Assembly: GCA_900316965.1 (NCBI GenBank)
Contig: ONEY01000002.1
Span: 1-64,000 of the forward strand
DNA from: an uncultured Bacteroidales bacterium
GTDB lineage: Bacteria; Bacteroidota; Bacteroidia; Bacteroidales; P3
Length of the DNA: 64,000 bases
Reading direction: 5' to 3'
A program made the position numbers and the translations under genes. Under the pieces are notes generated by a model. That model was not told where the DNA came from. It worked only from the letters and a program-made list of their open reading frames with translations, and ran no database searches. Positions 22,605 to 53,717 of this stretch are shown one piece after another; within the stretch, counting starts at the first letter, position 1, and each line of letters opens with the position of its first letter.

Positions 22605-22632
22605 CTCTCCATCCCTTCTCTCCACCCGCCGC

Positions 22633-22665
22633 GATAGTACTTCGATAGTACTTTGATAGTACCCA
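22633..22665. repeat. Three tandem 11-bp repeats (GATAGTACTTY)
   Basis: GATAGTACTTC, GATAGTACTTT and GATAGTACCCA follow each other without spacer. The unit is one turn of DNA. It lies 29 bp after rsmE. Confidence 0.85.
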
Positions 22666-22703
22666 GACGCTATTTTTTGGTGCCCTTCCCCAAGCACCCT
22701 TTT

Positions 22704-22736
22704 AGCGAACTCATAGCGGACTCATAGCGAACTCAT
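22704..22736. repeat. Three tandem 11-bp repeats (AGCGRACTCAT)
   Basis: AGCGAACTCAT, AGCGGACTCAT and AGCGAACTCAT in perfect tandem. Same unit length as the unrelated triplet 38 bp upstream. It is followed by a C/T-rich stretch (about 22737-22850) with no gene. Confidence 0.85.
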
Positions 22737-38200: not shown

Positions 38201-41200
38201 GTTGAGTCTTGCAACAGCTACACTTGGAACAACCACGGCAACGTGATTGACACCAATGTCAGCGGTGTATACTTCAGCAACTACATCAACGCCGACAACT
38301 GTCCGAGCGTCGATACCCTCTACCTGACCATCAACAAGAACAACGGCCAGACTCTCACCGAGAGCGTCTGCGACAGCTACACTTGGGCTGTTGACGGCCA
38401 GACTTACACTCAGACGGGTGTCTATACCTTCGACAGCACCGACGCTAACGGTTGCTACGCTCAGTGCACTCTCAACCTCACCGTGGGCTACACCACCAAC
38501 AATGCTGAAACCGTCGTCGCTTGCCACGCTTACAACTGGCATGGTACCGACTACAGCACCAGCGGTGATAAGCTTTATGCTTACACCAACGATGATGGTT
38601 GCCCGAGCGTTGACACCCTCCACCTGACCATCAACAACCAGACTACCTACGCTGTTCAGACTATCGAGAACTGCGGTCCTTACACTTGGACTGTTGGCGA
38701 TAGCATTATCGGTGTATTTGATCAGAGTATCGAAACTTCGACCACTCTCACCAACCCGAGAACAATGTGCGACAGCGTGGTCTTCTTGCGCCTGACGGTC
38801 TTCGAGGCTCCTCACGCTTATGAAACTGCTACTGTTTGTGCCGACGCACTGCCTTACACATGGCGTGGTATCGAGTTTGCCGCAGCTGGTGACACCGCTA
38901 TCACCACTGCTTACACCGACAACTGCGACAGCACAATCCACTTCGCTCTTACTGTCAACCCGTTGATCAATGTTGAGATTACCGACGTTGTTTGCCTCGG
39001 TCAGGATTACAGCGCTAACAACTTTGTTATCGCTGCCGCCGACCTCACAGCAGGTACTCACACATTCAGCCACACTGACGCTTCTGTACTCACCGGTTGC
39101 GACAGCACCACGACACTGACCCTCACCGTAGGCGATGTTATCTACAATGCTGCCGTCGAGGTTACCGCTTGCGACACCTATAATTGGACTCCTGGCGATG
39201 GTGAAACCTATAACTTCACCACCAGCGGCACCTACAACTCGAATGTCTATGCCAACAACATGGGCTGCTCGAGTGTCGATGTCCTCAACCTCACCATCAA
39301 CGAGAACAGCAGCACCGGCTACAACGCTACCGCTTGCGATACCTACACTTGGAACAACACCGTCTACACCGAAAGCGGCGACTACACATTCGCCTACAGC
39401 GATGCTAACGGCTGCGCCAGCGTAGATACTCTCCACCTCGTAATCAACAACAATAGCAACAGCAGCATTACCGCAGTTGCTTGCGACAGCTACGAGTGGC
39501 ACGGTACCGTCTACACCACCAGCGGCGACTACACCTATGATTATAGCACCAATGAAGGTTGCGCCAGCGTCGACACACTCCACCTGACTGTCAACTACAA
39601 CAGCAATAGTGCTATGAACGCTACCGCTTGCGACAGCTACGAGTGGAACGGCACTGTCTACACCGAAAGTGGCGACTACACCTATAATTATAACACCACT
39701 GACGGTTGCGCCAGCGTTGACACACTCCATCTGACTGTCAACTTCAACAGCAACAGCGCCATGAACGCTACTGCTTGCGACAGCTACACATGGAACAACA
39801 CTGTCTACACCGAAAGCGGCGACTACACCTATAGCTATACCAATGCTGACGGTTGCGCTAGCGTTGACACACTCCACCTGACTGTTAACTACAACAGCAG
39901 CAATGGCGTTGTTATCACCGCTTGCGACGGATACGAATGGCACGGTCAGAACTACACTTCTACTGGCGTCTACTACTATCCTTACAACACCGAAGAAGGT
40001 TGTGCTAGCCTCGATACCCTCCGTCTTACTGTCAACTACAACAGCAACAGCTCGTTCACCGAGACCGCTTGCGACAGCTATGAATGGAACGGTACCGTCT
40101 ACACCACTAGCGGCGACTATACTTATAGCTATACTACCGTTGCCGGCTGCGCCAGCACCGACACTCTCCACTTGACTGTCAACTACAACAGCAACCTTGG
40201 CACCACCATCACCGCTTGCGACAGCTACAATTGGAAGGGTACTGACTACACCACCAGCGGCACCTACTACTTCAACTACACCACCGAGGCCGGTTGCGCC
40301 AGCGTTGATACTCTCTATCTCACCATCAACGAGAACTCGAATCGTCAGCGTACCATCATCGCTTGCGACGAGTACACTTGGAACGGCGAGACCTATTATC
40401 AGTCTGGCGACTACTACTATAGCTACACCGCTAACAACGGTTGCCCGAGCGTCGATACTCTCCACCTCACTGTCAACTACAACACTAGCACCAAGCAGAC
40501 TGTTGTGGCTTGCGATGAGTACACTTGGAATGGTACCGAATACAACGCCAGCGGCATGTACATCCACGACTATGTAGCAGCTAACAACTGCGAAAGCAGC
40601 GACACTCTGATGCTCACCATCAACAACAGCACCACGAGCAGCTTCACTGACGCAGCTTGCAACTACTACATCTGGGATGGCAGAGCTTACACCGAGAGTG
40701 GATCTTACGATTACACCTACACCACTGACAATGGTTGCGACAGCGTGGTTACTCTCAACCTCACTATCAACACCCAGAAGACCAGCTCCGAGACCGCTAC
40801 CGCTTGCGGCAGCTACACTTGGAACGGCGCTACCTACAATGTCAGCGGTATCTACACCTACAATACCACCAGCGTCGATGGTTGCGATAGCGTTGTGACA
40901 CTCGCCCTGACTATCAGCCAGGCTGTTACTTCAACTATCAATGCTTCGGCTTGCAACGGTTATGTATGGAACGGTACTCCTTACACTGCTAGCGGCAACT
41001 ATACCGCCACCTACACCGCTGCCAACGGCTGTGACAGCGTCGTTACACTTGTACTGACTATCAATCAGCCCAAGACCACGACCATTGTTGCCACCGCTTG
41101 CGACAGCTACACATGGGCAGGCACCACCTACACCACTAGCGGCAACTACAGCAATACCACTATTGCTTCCAACGGTTGCGACAGTATCGTTACACTCCAG

Positions 41201-42361
41201 CTTACTATCAACAATGCTACTGCATCGACGGTCAATGTCACAGCTTGCGAAAGCTACACCTGGATTGATGGCCAGACCTACACGGCTTCTACCACTCAGC
41301 CCACAATGACTTTCGTCAACGCTAATGGCTGCGACAGCGTTGTCACTCTCAACCTGACAGTGAACAATGCCGCAACCTCGACAACCTACATGACAGCATG
41401 CGACAGCTACACCTGGAATGGCAATGTCTACACCACCAGCGGCAACTACACCTACAATGGTACTGCTGCCAACGGTTGCGACAGCATCGCTACCCTCGTT
41501 CTTACTGTCAACAGTCCAGTAAGCTCAACAACCACGATGACTGCTTGCGAAAGCTACACTTGGAACGGCAATGTCTATACCAATAGCGGAATCTACACCT
41601 ACAATGGTGTCGCCGTTAACGGTTGCGACAGCACCGCTACACTTATCCTCACTGTCAACCAGCCCAAGACCAACATTCTCACTGTCTCTGCTTGCGACAG
41701 CTACACTTGGGACGGCACCGCATACACCACCAGCGGCGAATACAGCCAGGCCTACACAGCCGCCAACGGCTGCGATAGCATTGTGACTCTCGCCCTGACG
41801 GTCAACACCAGCGATGCTGTTGTCGACGAGGTTACCGAATGCGACGGATTCTTCTGGATCAATGGTGTATACTACACCGAGAGCACCAACACTCCGACAA
41901 TGACATTCGTTAATGCCGCCGGCTGCGACAGCGTGGTAACTTTGAATCTTACTGTCAACCACAGCGTGGAAATCCACGATTCTATCGACATCCTCGACAC
42001 CCAGTTGCCATACAACTACAACGGTTTCATCGTGAATGAGGCTGGTGACTACTGGATCAACGGTACCACCGTTAATGGATGCGACAGTTCAATCTATCTC
42101 CACGTTGGTGTTTCTCACATCGGTGTCGACGTTGTCAGCGTCCTCGACGAGGTTAAGGTTTATCCTAACCCAACTCGTGGTCATGTTACCGTCAGCGCCA
42201 ATGAGGTTGTTAAAGTTGAGGTCTTCGACCTTGTCGGCCGTCTGGTCGCTTCGTTCGATAACACTGCCAACTTCGACATCTCCAACCTGGCTGAAGGCAG
42301 CTACACACTGCGTATCACTCTGCCAGAAGGTGTGACAACACGTAGGATAGTCAAGAAGTAA
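23264..42361 (+). CDS. Giant T9SS-secreted adhesin-like protein (6365 residues)
   Basis: A signal peptide (MKRKSIFLQLLLLVALLVPW, cleavage near TQAQ) is followed by a 200-residue beta domain. Residues about 229-2417 alternate nine fibronectin-III-like units (e.g. TAGNATQWQVR) with eight MAM/choice-of-anchor-J-like units starting DFENG/PECW and ending IDNVSV. A CUB-like domain lies at about 2420-2545. Two or three Ig/PKD-like domains follow (to about 2903). Then come more than 50 Cys-containing repeats of about 49 residues (CDSYTW ... GCDSVVTLNLTV) to about 6285. A T9SS type A sorting domain (VKVYPNPTRGHVTV, VFDLVGRLVASF) ends the protein. It should be exported by Sec, cross the outer membrane through T9SS and be displayed or released; adhesion is inferred from the domains. 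No catalytic domain seen. One uninterrupted frame, own promoter and terminator. Confidence 0.93.
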   Translation: MKRKSIFLQLLLLVALLVPWVTQAQVAKVSEYDFAANNVAYASIAGNGGTVWSAADVTNGYTTITMPFAMQYGQTSIGRGATLYVSANGYVTTGDPSMSGIVIAPLGTPSGFGNIAANTIYTKVESNKVTVEWRKLKVGNNVVSFQLVLTNTGTIKFNYGPMTLSTTAQVYAGMQSSAADIYCVATINNRWDTIVPTYTSLTATRTLSPSVHPYYNVDNNQGLSYTFTQPECAKPNSFGAVPSDFSVIFNWTGNGSKYQIKYNEGSDFAPMTQGTLLDNLTGNTYTLNNLPQRTTYYAYIRAFCATSGSWSAWRAVADESFSTGCGYEALPMVQNFTTAPECWDVLVSNNNASNTVWLDGDILRMRAGDENGGYASQVFAVLPKFNANLNNYELDINGYRESSTSGTLTLGYFTNINNMSGFVVLDTLEGFTTTPQNLSFYLTDYAAIPSGARLALRWSHSSSYWDFFIDEITVKPQPTCFPISNLQVSNITPTSAKFSFTDGHNTSTAYQLVYGAPGFSPAAATPVAITNGGVVNTLEGSTHYEAYVRAICGTEPLDWIGPVDFFTPCPAVTVSAANPFKEEFNSDELPNCWSKEGFASSDWSFESGNAKGSSSSCGTDCEAWLYTPVFSFGTGDIILSFKHKQQDWAGDQNYLTVYYRTSPSDEWHQIVQYTNSISDMTNEEMILPYTANASQYQLAFTSTNSYGYAVYLDDVKVRPAPTCAPVANLAISPSKVLTWTAGNATQWQVRYGIAGSDNYTFLFTNAATATLPLTGAAGTQYEISARSICGAGDTNDWADPVNYTMPLSLPYSCDFENGATGFITQSTGNNEWVVGTAKSNGGNGYYVSNDGVSNVYATGSNIAYAYVTLPFETAGDYMVKYDWTANGESTWDFLRVALVPDNVTLITSYSNSYNSTTPTGWIPVDGGSKLNLNTSWNTYAEVINVTTPGIYKLVFAWMNDNSGEYQPPAAIDNVSVRALNCNAPTNLAISPSKVLTWTAGNATQWQVRWAEDGSDVYTLSNVVTTASYTLPLTGGAGTTYNVSVRSICGAGDTLDWTAPLSYTIPVAIPYSCDFENGVNGIVFANGSLTNKWYMGTADNNTTGGSHSIYISNNSGTSADYNKSSSSVVYAYVTLPMTIAADYNISYDWKCYGESTYDYLRVALVPESVTLTPGTSLPSGLSTTATPSTWIAVDGGSKLNLSSSWNSVSRTVNISTPGNYKLVFVWRNDPSSGTNPPATIDNISVTRMSCNAPADIAYSAGTVTWTAGNATQWQVRLAKEGSDNYTYAVVNNASYTPTGLLDNTSYTIGIRSICGVDDTLQWTNTTFRTPCGAIQVLPYAEDFSGYTGLPSYPYYGPAVAPHCWNYYSNGTNTAATTGSSSYYGSVGTYSGTSYGSMISNDPYFCMPLYVISSSTTSSTYVNYNTQRGDTKYAVMPQFDQPLNNIMVSFDYKFSSSNTATTYNTALELGYITENDVNTFVSMQTYAATSTAIQHIVDMSLATLAASAPADARLTLKYSGTHNGTSSTSSGTVYCGIDNIRVKVIPNCFAPQVSTMTATNVTPTSATVSWVDQNTNTPTSWSVKYSSNANFDPATEGTATTVNTPTINLNGLESQTTYYVYVGVDCGSFGESEWSNAFTFTTECVPMTVLPYVYGFEDATTGTSTGTDFDAECWKRLNNGTTYYGYPYISSSSTYCHSGSRGLYWYNATTTGTYGDYQILVLPGVDATSHPANTLQMKFWAKASSTSYHPVFQVGVMTDPNDVSTFVNVATINVEGTTWTEYTAFLDSYTGNGIYVALRANRPTSAWYAYVDDFELSVIPPCIKPSNAHTTALTYNAATIDWTQNTVLSTESSWDVMFGPSPLDTTTATVTTLTDHVFNATGLDEQTSYDFYVRANCGADGYSDWSIVYTFTTPCAPIAVTKYNHYTEDFESTATNNLPDCWTKVGTGTVAVLSSTSNAHNSSYYLRFSGSLSNLVLLPETENEANTLQLNFWTRPESYSNTSCGSFSVGYVTDAEDASTFVAIATYNHNDWTSNTHEEKTVYMDAAPAGARMAMRHNAGSTSWYWYVDDIEVMPVPTCRVATNLTSENVYAKTANLSWTDNCLVTPAAWEVRYAPVAADLDNEGVSVEVTGAPALALANLLPETAYQWKVRSICVAAANYNGDTADWSNVANFTTMATCVVPTLSSPVASANSVTLSWTENTMPVGATQWEVAVGEPGFNKNIDGMHFTTNQNSNFVVTGLKHSTAYQVYVSSLCSDEDWSEWSTAANFSTSCAPWQYADMPLVQTFSVSGLPACWTKAGGYTITSTAYNRMEIYGTKSMVVLPEMAFALDTIEMSLEAANYSGTTERSFQVGYLADGTDTTTFTAVQTITLNSPEYNTFNISFADINNTTGRYIAIRGLQTGTTWADFYVKNVQVKLREPIAYLPSNETESNCVVFYMADTVNHENTYAGNVNMTQTIYPGEPGKVLHLTGMVDCEYGYDYLTIYEGVGTNGTILYSGTGYDDNIDIKTNSYDWVNKGAMTIVFTSDVDNADQYLGFKLLALCECPTAAPQRDWVVDTNTAFAWVNGRTYTNNVTIANQPDKTWNEEFMEKNLGQCDSVYHTLNLTIHPTYNLTARKELCQRESFEFYDTTLNATGVYTRTKKTAFGADSTTTLTLQVRPAPTAYIYVDNERTNGTIDAFCDNADLVMTARATIEGSNFKWEDNSTAAVRTVNPHENASYSVIAYDPTYNCPSLPVDLAVTTTPVPELSIVVENGDSVICAGGSTTLTVADANNTECTYVWSNNETGNSITVSPATTTTYTVTATTPNASACVATASAVITVNQLPVVTITPSANEICRYDSLTLSATEVDGYNYNWTSLNGATTAAVSFVPANTGRYNLTVTDANGCVNEFTSATVTVRPAYNINDTLSVCEAMLPVTWDAQTLSAAGNYDQTWNIAYGCDSTVHLYLDVTATGVSNAYATYCEGSAFTFGQGQYMTNHVADLNVTSLSYIDSTSEECPVQYNLYLTVNPKKATSFEANECDSYTWNEVEYTAAGSYNQTLQTINGCDSVVTLNLTLRNSTIGTDVQTVCDKLVWIDGNTYTENNTTAQYTIQNEAGCDSVVTLNLTVNYANTGVDDIRWCNTPTYTWINGVTYDMNETDGNVRYLLPNVTNQYGCDSTQILNLVFNLAADTMAWADTAVCDIFILDTVACDGSLVECQINQSGAYQLKTSIGNGRYVVSRYNVTINHSEYHTTVKRNVCLPYTWTDANDNFIAVINDIFTGSDTNISLTFAASENGCDRTEVLRLINAKPQTYNYVSGQVCLGETYSYGSYVLTPVEAGETTYRLATGEPNSFGCDSTDVLTLTVFPTSTEEMEIALCENSFEKGADSAYHYTFVNEENATETVDLTYANALNGSVYNGSAVANWTTENGCARTVTVNFTVKPNTSSSFETTELYTYTWDLNGETYDNEGVYTATAIYGENSYGCDSIITMNLTLHDTVYTVIDTTVCTSYKGPDDEVYRDDRSFTKVLAGASHFGTDSVIVTNFYVNQNPLTDVYVATNVPYTWVDGIEYTATGEAFYTLSDKNGCDSTLHLFFTKLNPIVLCYSELPYETGYGFTITDPISNTYSNNDLNGNDTIVSYVINQPIRKVFVDTACDNYTWDATALTYNESGVYFYDYTDSNSCPATDTLKLTVFHNTNSSETVTACDTYTWNNNGNSVTKTENGVYYSNYLTTDNCPSVDTLYLTVNYNTNSGATAIACDSYTWHDSAYTATGEYTYNYTAGNGCASVDTLYLTIGTAGNTNVNANVCDSYTWTENGVTYTESTVDSVVYQSVAGCDSTITLTLTVRHSTDSTVTEVACDTYTWAQNGETYTVSGNYVDTIANEALCDSIVTLNLTVNYNSNTAYTVAACDSYEWTNNGNTVTNTVSGTYFSSYTNVAGCPSVDTLYLTINNSKVYDTTIYSSEGFYQFNLVANDVTYDTLFSANAPTTFGPLTATLTTVAGCDSVVTYTFVVGTTRTKTEVVVACQEYTWPRNNVTYEFIDAAESAANNNALYKTTTGTYIYEAPIVTITNNNAIDSTFILQLVLTERYTGSADTTFLLSNETLALGDSVFNFSAQKAAGYRGYTETVQRSVYHPAVNYCDSLINYNITLVYNYDTAWVDICAEQTSVNWGTHSYVTTTPGTTYIFDTVADNGWFQTLVVNQKPVIASTDTKVACDTYTWIDGVTYTASNTTATDTLTAFDGCDSVVTLNLTIKHSNTGDTTAVSCGSFTWYGTTYTASTEEPTHLFTNAAGCDSTVTLHLTINNATTGDTTAVACESFTWYGTTYTASTEEATHTFANGNATGCDSTVTLHLTINMPTSSVLDTAVCDNFEWNNVTYTESANVVIDNLTNVKGCDSTATLHLTIKTSNTGIDEVIACDSLRWIDGTLYTINNYTAQHTIQNVAGCDSVVTLNLTINHATHNITNVTDACDNYVWTTSGMNYVYDANATYPLTITHNYVNGQNCPSVDTLKLTLHQSSAETFYDTVCDSYTWVNNGNSVTYTESGIYTSNYINTDNCPSTDMLYLTINVATTGNDEIIANNGYYRYDNVLYTADRDGGEYFDTTFTVASGLNAAGCDSTTMLHLLVGTNAIGMENQVVCDHFTWINGHTYEYRENAPEGALYYDATADEWVYARPRYTLPGVLSANGFDTIAVLNLTLTQINYTEQNVRFLLSQQQCFLTSDSNAAYTINFSGAEAGIVDTAFHFGATTHYCDSVITYHITLVDNYTNVGTEDICATVEDYTWNNTNILGGHSKTFDMTELITDFDHVTTITLTDTVFKGDADNEWVYAKTLVVHPVVYATERRTACDSYEWNGTVFTASTTTATRFFPNGSSYGCDSTVTLNLTIKYNSNTAYTATACDEYTWTLNNNQVYTTSGDYTRAYTAANGCPSVDTLHLTVNYKGDTTYTVTACDSYEWNSTTYTTSGHYGFSYNTNEGCASVDSLFLTVNHNSNSGETVESCNSYTWNNHGNVIDTNVSGVYFSNYINADNCPSVDTLYLTINKNNGQTLTESVCDSYTWAVDGQTYTQTGVYTFDSTDANGCYAQCTLNLTVGYTTNNAETVVACHAYNWHGTDYSTSGDKLYAYTNDDGCPSVDTLHLTINNQTTYAVQTIENCGPYTWTVGDSIIGVFDQSIETSTTLTNPRTMCDSVVFLRLTVFEAPHAYETATVCADALPYTWRGIEFAAAGDTAITTAYTDNCDSTIHFALTVNPLINVEITDVVCLGQDYSANNFVIAAADLTAGTHTFSHTDASVLTGCDSTTTLTLTVGDVIYNAAVEVTACDTYNWTPGDGETYNFTTSGTYNSNVYANNMGCSSVDVLNLTINENSSTGYNATACDTYTWNNTVYTESGDYTFAYSDANGCASVDTLHLVINNNSNSSITAVACDSYEWHGTVYTTSGDYTYDYSTNEGCASVDTLHLTVNYNSNSAMNATACDSYEWNGTVYTESGDYTYNYNTTDGCASVDTLHLTVNFNSNSAMNATACDSYTWNNTVYTESGDYTYSYTNADGCASVDTLHLTVNYNSSNGVVITACDGYEWHGQNYTSTGVYYYPYNTEEGCASLDTLRLTVNYNSNSSFTETACDSYEWNGTVYTTSGDYTYSYTTVAGCASTDTLHLTVNYNSNLGTTITACDSYNWKGTDYTTSGTYYFNYTTEAGCASVDTLYLTINENSNRQRTIIACDEYTWNGETYYQSGDYYYSYTANNGCPSVDTLHLTVNYNTSTKQTVVACDEYTWNGTEYNASGMYIHDYVAANNCESSDTLMLTINNSTTSSFTDAACNYYIWDGRAYTESGSYDYTYTTDNGCDSVVTLNLTINTQKTSSETATACGSYTWNGATYNVSGIYTYNTTSVDGCDSVVTLALTISQAVTSTINASACNGYVWNGTPYTASGNYTATYTAANGCDSVVTLVLTINQPKTTTIVATACDSYTWAGTTYTTSGNYSNTTIASNGCDSIVTLQLTINNATASTVNVTACESYTWIDGQTYTASTTQPTMTFVNANGCDSVVTLNLTVNNAATSTTYMTACDSYTWNGNVYTTSGNYTYNGTAANGCDSIATLVLTVNSPVSSTTTMTACESYTWNGNVYTNSGIYTYNGVAVNGCDSTATLILTVNQPKTNILTVSACDSYTWDGTAYTTSGEYSQAYTAANGCDSIVTLALTVNTSDAVVDEVTECDGFFWINGVYYTESTNTPTMTFVNAAGCDSVVTLNLTVNHSVEIHDSIDILDTQLPYNYNGFIVNEAGDYWINGTTVNGCDSSIYLHVGVSHIGVDVVSVLDEVKVYPNPTRGHVTVSANEVVKVEVFDLVGRLVASFDNTANFDISNLAEGSYTLRITLPEGVTTRRIVKK
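31976..42120 (+). repeat. Coding tandem repeats, ~147-bp unit (CDSYxW ... GCDS)
   Basis: The C-terminal half of the giant gene is built of repeats that each encode one Cys in a C-D-S-Y-x-W motif and a second about 25-30 residues later in G-C-D/A/P-S, then L-x-L-T-V/I-N. The paired cysteines probably form a disulfide in each unit (inference). Between 31976 and about 37860 units are divergent and vary in length; from about 39300 to 41830 they are regular, 49 codons each, and several (39.3-40.5 kb) are nearly identical in DNA, pointing to recent duplication. Confidence 0.88.
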
Positions 42362-42831: not shown

Positions 42832-42916
42832 GCCCGGATGGCGGAATTGGTAGACGCGCACGTTTCAGGTGCGTGTATCGAAAGATGTGCAGGTTCAAGT
42901 CCTGTTCCGGGCACCA
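42832..42916 (+). tRNA. tRNA-Leu (anticodon CAG), CCA encoded; integration target
   Basis: Acceptor GCCCGGA/TCCGGGC with discriminator A and encoded CCA. The anticodon stem CACGT/GCGTG holds loop TTCAGGT, anticodon CAG; a long variable arm (TATCGAAAGATG) follows. Its last 17 bases recur at 49981, 51968 and 53703 (15 bases), so this gene appears to be the attachment site of the cassette array downstream. Confidence 0.93.
42900..42916 (+). other. att core copy A (within tRNA-Leu 3' end)
   Basis: TCCTGTTCCGGGCACCA, the 3' T-arm and acceptor strand of the intact tRNA-Leu(CAG). It is followed by the same 55-base hairpin sequence as copies B and C. The role as attachment site is inferred from the direct repeats. 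Confidence 0.7.
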
Positions 42917-49867: not shown

Positions 49868-49980
49868 TTTGGCCATTTTTTTGACGTTTTACTGGATTTT
49901 GATGTGTTATTTGAGTGTATAATAATTCATAAAACCCGAAATAATAACTAATTATACTTAATAGGAAGTAATTAAAGCGT
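49866..49980 (+). repeat. Right arm of module 1
   Basis: From 49884 (ACGTTTTACTGGATTTTGAT and onward) to the att core this is almost the same as 51871-51967; the first 35 bases after ACG are identical. It opens with TTTGGCCATTT. Confidence 0.75.
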
Positions 49981-49997
49981 TCCTGTTCCGGGCACCA
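49981..49997 (+). other. att core copy B
   Basis: TCCTGTTCCGGGCACCA, identical to the 3' end of tRNA-Leu(CAG), without the rest of a tRNA. Directly followed by the left arm of module 2. Confidence 0.7.
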
Positions 49998-50186: not shown

Positions 50187-51539
50187 CTACAGGAACATTG
50201 TCATAAACACAGGCAACAGTGTCGTTGACCCGTCCTTCCGGAAATCCTTGGTATAGATAAGATACCTTTCTCCAACTCGTGAAGAATATTTCTCACAAAA
50301 GGCATCAAGCGACTTGTGAGTGCTGTATCCTGAAGATTTCACCTCAATGGGGTATAGTTTGGAGCCTTTCGACATCAAAAAGTCTATTTCATAGTTGTGG
50401 GTGGCATCTCTGGGCCAAGTGTAATAAAACAGTTTGTTGCCAGATGCAGCGAGCATCTGTGCTATCATATTTTCATAGATGTAGCCAAGATTGGTGCTGA
50501 GTTTGTCGTTTAGCAACTTTTGATAAATGTCGTTCTCCGTATAGTCTTTGTCCCAAAAGGCAAGCGTGACAAACAAGCCAGTGTCAGCACAGAAGATTTT
50601 GTACTTTGAGAACTCCTTCGTGAGCGACATACCCACGTTGGGGTCGTTGGAGTGGTAGGAGAAAAGCGTGGTCTTGCTGTCTTCTAAGTTTTTCATCATT
50701 TCCATCAGTTTGTCCCCATCCACGTTGCCGAGAATGGAATAAGGTTTATAACGATTAACCGTCTGGCTTAGTTGTGACGGTATCTCCATATAAAGCGTTT
50801 CCAGTCGTCCTGTTGGGTCAAGTTTCTGAAAGTCGTCACGGTAAATCTGAATAATCCCACGCTTGGCCGAATCAACCAGGCTGAAGTTGTTTGTTTCAAT
50901 GTAGGTGCTGACGGCCTGGGGCATACCGCCAATGAGCATATAAAGCCTGAAATCACGGATTTTGTCACGGAACGACTGCTCGAGTGGTAGTTTTTTTTCG
51001 TAGAAGGTTCGGAGCAGTGGTACGGAAGCTTCATCTCCCATAGCCCAACGGAATTCCTCGTAATCCATAGGATGGAGTGTTACCCGTTCTTCCTCGCTTG
51101 GGAGTGTGATATTTTTTGTGTTCTTCTTGATGCTGATAAGCGAACCGGTTTCGATATAATCGTATCGGCCGTCTTTCACCAAATACTTGATGGCTTGACG
51201 GGCAAGGGGACAGTTCTGTACTTCATCGAGGATGATAACTGACTTACGTTTTTTCAAGACCACATTGTACAGCGACTGTAGCTGCAAAAAGATAAAGTCC
51301 AAATTCATCAGATTATCAAACAAAGACTTCACCTCCGCTGATGCCTCGTTGAAATCAATGAGAATGTATGATTCATACTCGTTTTTGGCAAATTGTTCGA
51401 CCAATGTCGATTTCCCCACACGTCGTGCTCCTTCAATCAAAATGGCAGTTTTTCCATCACGAACTCGCTTCCATTCGAGCAATCTTCCATACAGTTTTCT
51501 TTTGAAAATCAGATTCATATCAATATTAGCATTATTCAT
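50187..51539 (-). CDS. AAA ATPase with DUF4143-type C-terminus (module 2)
   Basis: 450 residues. Walker A EGARRVGKST near residue 37, Walker B SVIILDEVQNCP, a TGS sensor-like motif (YIETGSLISI), then a winged-helix middle region and a C-terminal EIDFLMSKGSKLYPIEVKSS, the D...E-x-K core of a PD-(D/E)xK-like fold. This AAA/DUF4143 family is abundant and multi-copy in Bacteroidetes and archaea; its function is unsettled. The minus-strand -7 box ends only 11 bases before the first ATG (51539), so the second Met (MNLIFKRKLYG, 51518) may be the true start. It is the sole cargo of the module and points opposite to its neighbours. Confidence 0.88.
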   Translation of the reverse strand: MNNANIDMNLIFKRKLYGRLLEWKRVRDGKTAILIEGARRVGKSTLVEQFAKNEYESYILIDFNEASAEVKSLFDNLMNLDFIFLQLQSLYNVVLKKRKSVIILDEVQNCPLARQAIKYLVKDGRYDYIETGSLISIKKNTKNITLPSEEERVTLHPMDYEEFRWAMGDEASVPLLRTFYEKKLPLEQSFRDKIRDFRLYMLIGGMPQAVSTYIETNNFSLVDSAKRGIIQIYRDDFQKLDPTGRLETLYMEIPSQLSQTVNRYKPYSILGNVDGDKLMEMMKNLEDSKTTLFSYHSNDPNVGMSLTKEFSKYKIFCADTGLFVTLAFWDKDYTENDIYQKLLNDKLSTNLGYIYENMIAQMLAASGNKLFYYTWPRDATHNYEIDFLMSKGSKLYPIEVKSSGYSTHKSLDAFCEKYSSRVGERYLIYTKDFRKDGSTTLLPVFMTMFL

Positions 51540-51603: not shown

Positions 51604-51677
51604 AAATACCAAAATTTTTTACGGCGACTTCTGTAAAAATACCAAAATGTCTAATTGTAAAACATCCTCAAATACCA
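51604..51677 (-). repeat. Phased direct repeats upstream of module-2 ATPase
   Basis: AAATACCA occurs at 51604, 51637 and 51670, exactly 33 bp apart; the first two lie in a longer shared AAAAATACCAAAAT. In gene orientation these are TGGTATTT sites just upstream of the -33 element. Likely operator sites; binding protein unknown. Confidence 0.6.
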
Positions 51678-51843: not shown

Positions 51844-51967
51844 CTTGGCCATAGTTTGGCCATATTTTTTACGTTTTACTGGATTTTGATGTGTTATTTG
51901 AGTGTAGGATAATTCATAAAGCCCAAAATAACAACTATTTATGCTTAATAGGAAATAATTAAAGCAG
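51844..51967 (+). repeat. Right arm of module 2
   Basis: TTGGCCATAGTTTGGCCATA is followed, from 51871, by the ~97-base segment shared with the right arm of module 1, ending AATTAAAGCAG before the att core. Confidence 0.75.
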
Positions 51968-51984
51968 TCCTGTTCCGGGCACCA
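51968..51984 (+). other. att core copy C
   Basis: TCCTGTTCCGGGCACCA again, preceded by AG as in the intact tRNA. It is followed by a terminator (51986-52012) and a GC-rich linker, then a partial second copy CCGGGCAC at 52070 joined to the left arm. Confidence 0.7.
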
Positions 51985-52278: not shown

Positions 52279-52352
52279 TTGAGTAATTTTGCAGCGCAAT
52301 TTGAGTAAATTTATAATTAAAATTGAGTAAAATTACCTATTGATTTGAATAA
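52279..52352 (+). repeat. 22-bp-phased direct repeats at the module-3 ATPase promoter
   Basis: TTGAGTAA at 52279, 52301 and 52323 and TTGAATAA at 52345, each exactly 22 bp from the last. The first overlaps the -7 box TAATTTTG (52284-52291) and the last touches the ATG at 52352. Arrangement fits an autoregulatory operator; the binding protein is unknown. Confidence 0.75.
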
Positions 52353-53560
52353 TGGAATATATTCGTAAACAGTTCCATACGCTTAAGAAACGAATTCTGG
52401 AACCAAGAAAATTTATACAGGTGCTTGCTGGACCAAGACAGATTGGAAAGTCCACTCTGGTGAATCAATTGCTGGAGAAGGTGAGCATTCCTCATACGAT
52501 AGAGGTTGCAGATGCAGTGGAACCGAGAGACAGCGACTGGATCCACCGCGTATGGGAGTCGGCCCGCACCACGATGATGCTCCGCAGGTTGGACGAGTAC
52601 CTACTGGTGATTGACGAGGTGCAAAAGATTGAGAACTGGAGCGAGGTCGTGAAACGGGAATGGGATACCGACTCTCGAAACCATTTGAACCTGAAGGTGG
52701 TGCTGCTGGGCAGTAGTCGTCTGCTGCTGAAGAAGGGTCTTACCGAGTCGTTGGCTGGTCGCTTTGAACTAATCAGGATGCCGCACTGGAGCCTGCAAGA
52801 GATGCGTGATGCCTTTGGGCTTTCGCTGGACGAATATATCTACTTTGGCGGATATCCAGGTGCTGCACACATGATACATGATGAGCGACGCTGGCGGAAG
52901 TACATAAAAGATTCGCTGGTGGCTCCTGCCATTGAGAAAGATGTGATCATGACGTCGAACATCTACAAGCCAGCACTAATGAAGCAAATGTTCGAGCTGG
53001 GGTGCGGCTATTCGGCCGAAATTCTGTCACTCACCAAGATGATGGGGCAGTTGCAGGATGCGGGCAATGTGACCACATTGGCCAGCTATCTGGATATTCT
53101 GGAACAATGTGCCTTGTTGACAGGATTGCAAAAATACGCCAAGGACGAGGCTCGTAAACGAAACTCGATACCGAAGTATCAGGTGTATAACAATGCATTG
53201 TTGACTGCCTACAAGGGGAGAGAATTCGTGGAAGACAGGACAGACACCCGAGTCTGGGGACGCTGGGTAGAGAGTGCCGTAGGTGCACATCTGCTGAGCA
53301 TGGCTGACGAATTGGACTATAAAGTGTATTATTGGCGCGAAACGTCAAAGAACAAAGATGAGAAGGATAAAGAAGTGGACTTCATCGTGGTTCGCGACGG
53401 CGAGGTAACGGCAATTGAGGTGAAGAGCGGCCGCAGGGGAATGAATTCCGGACTGCCAGCCTTTGTGGAGGACTTCCACCCCAAACGTTCGTTTGTGGCG
53501 GGGACAGGAGGTGTGAGCTTGGAAGATTTCCTTAGTAGCGATATTGAGGAGTTGCTGTAG
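52352..53560 (+). CDS. AAA ATPase with DUF4143-type C-terminus (module 3)
   Basis: 402 residues. Walker A AGPRQIGKST near residue 26, Walker B YLLVIDEVQKIENW, sensor region VVLLGSSRLLLKKG, arginine-rich LAGRFELIRMPHWS, then winged-helix-like segments (SAEILSLTKMMGQLQDAGNVTTLASYL) and a C-terminal EVDFIVVRDGEVTAIEVKSG with the nuclease-like D...E-x-K core. Same broad family as the ATPase of module 2 but clearly a different subfamily, so the two were not made by local duplication. Preceded by phased repeats at 22 bp. The family's molecular job is not established. Confidence 0.88.
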   Translation: MEYIRKQFHTLKKRILEPRKFIQVLAGPRQIGKSTLVNQLLEKVSIPHTIEVADAVEPRDSDWIHRVWESARTTMMLRRLDEYLLVIDEVQKIENWSEVVKREWDTDSRNHLNLKVVLLGSSRLLLKKGLTESLAGRFELIRMPHWSLQEMRDAFGLSLDEYIYFGGYPGAAHMIHDERRWRKYIKDSLVAPAIEKDVIMTSNIYKPALMKQMFELGCGYSAEILSLTKMMGQLQDAGNVTTLASYLDILEQCALLTGLQKYAKDEARKRNSIPKYQVYNNALLTAYKGREFVEDRTDTRVWGRWVESAVGAHLLSMADELDYKVYYWRETSKNKDEKDKEVDFIVVRDGEVTAIEVKSGRRGMNSGLPAFVEDFHPKRSFVAGTGGVSLEDFLSSDIEELL

Positions 53561-53570
53561 TGGAATAGTA

Positions 53571-53702
53571 CGAAAGGCTGGTCATAATTTGGTCATATTT
53601 TAGAAGTTTTGTTGGTCATAAATGTCATATTCAGAGTAAAAAAAGAAATTATAAAATGAACAATATCAACCAATAAGAAATAATAACAAGTCTTCGATTT
53701 AG
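53571..53702 (+). repeat. Right arm of module 3
   Basis: TGGTCATAATTTGGTCATATTTT near 53579-53601 and a further TTGGTCATAAATGTCATA, then an A/T-rich stretch ending AATAAGAAATAATAACAAG, weakly like the ends of the other right arms. Confidence 0.6.
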
Positions 53703-53717
53703 TCCTGTTCCGGGCAC
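53703..53717 (+). other. att core copy D (distal end of the array)
   Basis: TCCTGTTCCGGGCAC, preceded by AG; the CCA is altered to CTA. It is followed by terminator 53721-53747 (AGCAAGT/ACTTGCT, T-run), a GC-rich stretch to about 53920 without a gene, and a diverged version of the left-arm hairpin (AGATCTTGC, 53931). No TTGGCCATA repeat follows, so the array ends here. Confidence 0.65.

What the first reader, a model, noticed from the sequence alone, without database searches (positions are those of the whole stretch)
52279..52352. Four TTGAGTAA sites at exact 22-bp intervals over the ATPase promoter and start codon
Sites at 52279, 52301, 52323 and 52345 are spaced by exactly two helical turns, the first overlaps the -7 box and the last touches the ATG. 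This would place a cooperative repressor along one face of the DNA, covering the whole initiation region. Since the gene is the only one in the module, autoregulation by the AAA ATPase or by its winged-helix part is a natural guess.
Basis: partly seen in the sequence, partly recalled or inferred. Interest (0 to 1): 0.6.

Follow-up and report, generated by a model that had tools for sequence, protein, structure and literature searches.

The report
Phased DNA array beside its reader ATPase
The row of repeats in front of this ATPase-nuclease gene is real, recurs in front of its relatives in several bacterial phyla with their own words and the same fixed spacing, and is probably the switch that the protein itself reads; the gene belongs to one of the commonest unexplained antiviral-defence candidates.

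Summary
The array is real. TTGAGTAA stands at 52279, 52301 and 52323; the fourth site (52345) is TTGAATAA. No shuffle reproduces three equally spaced copies. In relatives of this AAA_14-DUF4143 ATPase, 3-7 repeats precede the gene, and 111 of 131 adjacent spacings are exactly 22 bp. The word differs by clade (TTGAGTAA, TTGCGTAA, GAAGATTT, TTGAGAATTT, CCTAATAA). The window's second DUF4143 ATPase (50187-51539) has its own array, three TGGTATTT at 33 bp, and its relatives keep 33 bp (33 of 38). 22-bp arrays also precede relatives from Clostridiales, Collinsella and Rhizobium. In ~80%-identical relatives, homology starts near the array and ends near the stop codon. In this subfamily only the helix-turn-helix covaries with the repeat beyond the tree (partial r 0.44, p 0.002). 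The protein is a AAA+ ATPase, winged helix and PD-(D/E)XK nuclease with invariant active-site residues, and matches PADLOC's defence candidate PDC-S01. Best explanation: the cassette's own winged helix reads a helically phased operator, most likely for negative autoregulation. Reading by the own protein is strongly supported by inference; repression is not shown. A role as assembly platform for the nuclease is not excluded. Flanking direct duplications are not specific to this family.

The parts
52279..52286 (+). repeat 1, TTGAGTAA, overlaps the -7 box
52301..52308 (+). repeat 2, TTGAGTAA, 22 bp on
52323..52330 (+). repeat 3, TTGAGTAA, 22 bp on
52345..52352 (+). repeat 4, TTGAATAA (one mismatch), last base is the A of the start codon
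52284..52291 (+). TAnnTTTG -7 box (TAATTTTG) inside the array
   Evidence: sequence; promoter type from general knowledge of Bacteroidota
52352..53560 (+). AAA_14-DUF4143 ATPase with winged helix and PD-(D/E)XK nuclease; PADLOC PDC-S01
52970..53185 (+). winged helix (residues 207-278); residues 205-252 covary with the repeat word
53246..53536 (+). PD-(D/E)XK nuclease domain (about residues 299-395); E307, D343, E356 and K358 invariant in the 32-sequence alignment
51604..51677 (-). second array: TGGTATTT at 51677-51670, 51644-51637, 51611-51604, spaced exactly 33 bp
   Evidence: conserved 33-bp period in relatives
50187..51539 (-). second AAA_14-DUF4143 ATPase (PDC-S01, another subfamily), behind the 33-bp array

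Best explanation
The array is the cognate DNA site of the ATPase it precedes. Several copies of the protein bind along one face of the DNA through the winged helix, one per repeat, held at two helical turns (22 bp) by protein-protein contacts; in the sister subfamily the contact sets three turns (33 bp). The bound row covers or adjoins the promoter, so the protein most likely keeps its own expression low, as one would expect for a horizontally moving ATPase-nuclease. Array and gene are inherited and transferred as one unit. Shown: the array, its period, its linkage to the gene, the diversification of the word with the HTH. Inferred: direct binding, filament-like cooperation. Least certain: that the outcome is repression.
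For: Lag-22 repeat signal 1331 against 14.6 +- 12.8 in shuffles over 68 upstream regions; 0 in 18 SLFN_AlbA_2 control genes. 111 of 131 spacings exactly 22 bp; 33 of 38 exactly 33 bp in the second subfamily. The word tracks the ATPase tree: 7 changes, minimum 6, shuffled mean 20. In palindromic versions both half-sites change together (TTGAGTAAAATTACTCA to TTGCGTAAAAATACGCA). In 20 relatives of about 80% DNA identity, homology begins near the array and ends near the stop codon, so a host-encoded reader is unlikely. HTH residues 205-252 covary with the repeat unit beyond the tree, best p(max) 0.002 over all windows. AlphaFold model pLDDT 90.5: AAA+, winged helix, nuclease; structural neighbours SSO1545 Z 16.6 and PABY2304 Z 16.5, origin-bound Orc1/Cdc6 Z 13.9. 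No second array in the own genome.
Against: No binding or expression data exist. Array position relative to the -7 box varies (22-bp subfamily: 12 upstream, 5 over, 23 downstream; 33-bp subfamily: 19 of 19 upstream), so in the 33-bp subfamily activation is as possible as repression. In that subfamily the covariation peak is not in the HTH (residues 331-354, p 0.012, n 17). Linkage of word and gene tree is expected for any neighbouring DNA; only the partial test addresses this.
Confidence: 0.6

Rival explanations
1. Assembly platform rather than, or besides, an operator: the ATPase-nuclease is stored or activated as a row on its own array, and the array is a working part of the defence candidate (loss or occupation of the array by an invader would release the nuclease).
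For: Period fixed at exact multiples of 11 bp and tied to the protein subfamily; array kept whether upstream, over or downstream of the promoter; fold relatives are oligomerising ATPases such as CED-4 and Orc1/Cdc6; nuclease residues invariant.
Against: All arrays of intact genes lie next to the gene's own start, which autoregulation alone explains; no functional data.
Confidence: 0.2
2. Autogenous activation: the row recruits RNA polymerase, as SARP and LAL regulators do from direct repeats upstream of promoters.
For: In the 33-bp subfamily all 19 scored arrays lie upstream of the -7 box; SARP-LAL precedent PMC5930380.
Against: In many 22-bp arrays the repeats lie downstream of or over the -7 box, where an activator would block.
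Confidence: 0.1
3. A host-encoded repressor silences these acquired genes through the repeats.
For: Genes are accessory and AT-rich upstream.
Against: TTGAGTAA-like words at 22 bp recur in Clostridiales and Actinomycetota relatives, while words differ between clades in one genus; a host factor would show the reverse pattern.
Confidence: 0.05
4. Iteron-like origin or mobile-element end: the repeats serve replication or transposition of the one-gene cassette.
For: 22-bp direct repeats beside a AAA+ winged-helix gene resemble iterons and origin boxes; cassettes sit in unrelated contexts; 12 of 52 carry long flanking direct duplications and one empty site was found.
Against: No conserved ends; duplications of 21-186 bp are variable and also flank 3 of 18 control genes; no plasmid Rep family match.
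Confidence: 0.04
5. Chance or low-complexity repeats in AT-rich DNA.
For: Region is AT-rich.
Against: 0 of 3000 shuffles; conserved period across phyla.
Confidence: 0.01

Closest known systems
PDC-S01 (PADLOC single-gene phage defence candidate); Pfam AAA_14 + DUF4143
   Same: Both window ATPases match PDC-S01 models at 1.7e-180 and 1.3e-92 and both Pfam domains over cut-off.
   Different: No description of the arrays was found in the papers searched; PDC-S01 is ranked fourth most common defence in prokaryotes and validation of most such candidates is pending (PMC12988326).
RptR operator of a phage defence island (PMC12255303)
   Different: RptR is a small separate regulator with 9-bp repeats; here the repeats are 22 or 33 bp apart and the candidate reader is the effector itself.
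SARP / SARP-LAL and MalT-type STAND regulators
   Same: ATP-binding regulators with direct repeats phased at one helical turn (11 bp) on one face of DNA (PMC5930380; MalT from general knowledge).
   Different: They activate separate target genes and have no PD-(D/E)XK nuclease; here the only array is at the own gene.
Archaeal AAA+ ATPases SSO1545 (2fna) and PABY2304 (2qen)
   Same: Closest solved folds, Z 16.6 and 16.5 over residues 1-289.
   Different: 16% identity; the aligned part stops before the nuclease domain.
Iterons and Orc1/Cdc6 origin boxes
   Same: AAA+ or winged-helix protein that reads repeats beside its own gene (general knowledge); origin-bound Orc1/Cdc6 among structural neighbours.
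   Different: No Rep family match and no evidence of replication.

Membership tests
PDC-S01 / AAA_14-DUF4143 | Match to the family models over cut-off | tested here: met
PDC-S01 / AAA_14-DUF4143 | Antiviral activity | not testable with these tools
   candidate only; validation pending according to PMC12988326
PD-(D/E)XK nuclease | Catalytic acidic residues and lysine | tested here: met
   E307, D343, E356, K358 invariant in 32 sequences; activity not tested
STAND-like archaeal ATPase fold (SSO1545) | AAA+ domain followed by winged helix, similar fold | tested here: met
   model pLDDT 90.5, Z 16.6
Autoregulatory phased operator | Direct binding and change of expression by the gene product | not testable with these tools
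   covariation with the HTH is indirect support
Iteron replicon | Plasmid Rep initiator family | tested here: not met
   Pfam scan shows AAA_14 and DUF4143, no Rep family
DDE or Tn7-type transposon | Conserved terminal inverted repeats and short fixed target duplication | tested here: not met
   variable 21-186 bp duplications in a minority, no common ends; a TniB match just over its cut-off covers part of the AAA domain only

The most novel reading that the evidence does not exclude
The array is an obligatory second component of PDC-S01: each ATPase-nuclease assembles as a row on its private, helically phased array, and the fast-changing word gives each cassette its own identity, so that several can coexist in one genome without cross-talk and the array decides whether the nuclease is held or released.
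Probability: 0.2. Interest if true: 0.88.

Novelty: new variant of a known kind. Interest (0 to 1): 0.72.

Why it matters
PDC-S01 is reported as the most frequent single defence locus in rumen genomes (PMC13356809) and among the commonest in prokaryotes (PMC12988326), yet how it works is unknown. A private array at exactly two or three helical turns, tied to the protein subfamily, gives a direct handle: it names the DNA ligand, the reading domain and the geometry of the assembly, and it can be tested with a gel shift. It also supplies natural paired sets of word and HTH for studying how DNA recognition diversifies.

Tried and rejected
Mobility of the cassette by its own means: long flanking direct duplications looked telling (12 of 52 against 0 of 56 window controls), and one insertion (L027) has an empty site in a relative, but SLFN_AlbA_2 genes show them too (3 of 18), so they are taken as a general mark of acquired genes. 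tRNA-directed integration as the rule: the window's genes sit between copies of a tRNA-Leu 3' end, but only 3 of 70 loci have a tRNA within the fetched DNA. RNA-level role: rejected because many arrays lie upstream of the promoter. Regulon: no second array in the genome. Structure of the nuclease part alone was not searched, so its nearest solved fold is untested. Covariation in the 33-bp subfamily did not point to the HTH. Literature terms DUF4143, COG1373 and PDC-S01 gave no account of the repeats, in an open-access library only.

Full report
What is there. Upstream of the ATPase gene 52352-53560, TTGAGTAA stands at 52279, 52301 and 52323, and TTGAATAA at 52345, at exactly 22-bp steps. The first site overlaps TAATTTTG (52284-52291), a TAnnTTTG box; the last ends on the A of the ATG. 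The title's 'four TTGAGTAA' is thus three plus one variant. Chance is excluded: 0 of 3000 dinucleotide shuffles hold three equally spaced exact 8-mers, and only three places in the 64 kb do.

Relatives keep it. Upstream regions of relatives found in the same genus and in other genomes were read directly. Nearly all of this subfamily carry three to seven repeats at 22 bp just before the gene. Over 68 regions the lag-22 signal is 1331 against 14.6 +- 12.8 in shuffles, with echoes at 44 and 66. Of 131 adjacent spacings, 111 are exactly 22. The word is not fixed: TTGAGTAA in the window's clade and in several deeper ones, GAAGATTT, TTGAGAATTT, TTGCGTAA, CCTAATAA and others elsewhere. Some clades have palindromic units (TTGAGTAAAATTACTCA); where the word changed to TTGCGTAA the partner half changed with it (TTGCGTAAAAATACGCA, L027 and L029). 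The same 22-bp step precedes relatives in Clostridiales (L067), Collinsella, Bacteroides finegoldii, a faecal phage scaffold and Rhizobium.

A second case in the window. The neighbour 50187-51539 on the other strand is also an AAA_14-DUF4143 ATPase. It has TGGTATTT three times at exactly 33 bp. Its relatives show a sharp period of 33 bp (lag 33 score 546, median over lags 0; 33 of 38 spacings) with very diverse words, and two further groups show 33 or 34 bp. The period therefore goes with the protein subfamily, in whole helical turns of 11 bp. Members of the best-matching DUF4143 subfamily drawn across the phylum instead mostly have one inverted repeat of 31-44 bp ending a few bases before the ATG (25 of 30 with score 8 or more; no shuffle control was run for this).

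Array and gene are one unit. In 20 relatives with about 80% DNA identity, similarity starts near the array and stops near the stop codon, with unrelated flanks. L058 and L059, 94% identical, share only the stretch from the first repeat to 3 bases after the stop. Truncated genes and arrays without a gene also occur, pointing to rapid gain and decay. The only shared thing that could read the array is the gene product.

Which part reads it. The repeat word follows the ATPase tree (7 changes, 6 is the minimum, shuffled mean 20), which linkage alone would give. The sharper test asks which protein windows resemble each other in step with the repeat unit once overall similarity is removed. Only windows within residues 205-252, peak 217-246, pass the permutation threshold (partial r 0.44, p 0.002 against the maximum over all windows, 26 thinned sequences). 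In the AlphaFold model (pLDDT 90.5) these are the helices of a winged helix (207-278). In the 33-bp subfamily the peak lies elsewhere (331-354, p 0.012, 17 sequences), which is unexplained.

The protein. AAA+ domain, winged helix, and a C-terminal PD-(D/E)XK domain with E307, D343, E356 and K358 invariant in 32 sequences. Solved neighbours are SSO1545 and PABY2304 (Z 16.6, 16.5), then CED-4 and Orc1/Cdc6. PADLOC files both window ATPases as PDC-S01 (1.7e-180 and 1.3e-92). PDC-S01 is reported as the most frequent single locus in rumen genomes (PMC13356809) and fourth most common defence in prokaryotes, with most such candidates unvalidated (PMC12988326).

Mechanism. Fixed phasing on one face, a covarying winged helix and a site next to the own promoter point to cooperative binding by the gene product, most simply negative autoregulation. 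RptR, which represses a defence island from three direct repeats (PMC12255303), and SARP regulators, phased at 11 bp (PMC5930380), are precedents for the parts. The array may lie upstream of, over or downstream of the -7 box, so the effect on transcription could differ between subfamilies, and a role as an assembly platform for the nuclease remains open.

Insertion marks. Twelve of 52 cassettes have direct duplications of 21-186 bp on both sides, and one empty site with a single copy was found. Control SLFN_AlbA_2 genes show such duplications too (3 of 18), so no claim of self-mobility is made. In the window both ATPases lie between copies of a tRNA-Leu 3' end, a local island feature.

Noticed in passing
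42898-42914, 49979-49995, 51966-51982, 53701-53717: Copies of the 3' end of tRNA-Leu(CAG) (gene 42832-42916) divide the region into tandem segments; each DUF4143 ATPase lies alone in a 1.7-2.0 kb segment without an integrase, with repeated TGGCCATA or TGGTCATA motifs near the borders. Looks like accreted islands at one tRNA.
   Followed up: partly
50187-51539 and 51604-51677: The neighbouring DUF4143 ATPase has its own array, TGGTATTT x3 at 33 bp.
   Followed up: yes
L084, L087, L090: Internally deleted or truncated ATPase genes with intact array and start beside a dUTPase gene in three genomes.
   Followed up: partly
L076, L077, L089: TTGAGTAA arrays at 22 bp without an ATPase gene of this subfamily; L077 stands before another ATPase-like ORF.
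   Followed up: no
L104-L133 upstream of ATG: Canonical DUF4143 genes mostly have one clade-specific inverted repeat ending a few bases before the ATG.
   Followed up: partly
L085 and L103 (G050): Long run of TTGAGTAAGGT units at 11 bp, with no relative of the ATPase found beside it.
   Followed up: no
22632-22736: Two short tandem arrays of 11-bp units (CGATAGTACTT and TAGCGAACTCA).
   Followed up: no
39297-41744: Large tandem repeats with a period of about 147 bp.
   Followed up: no
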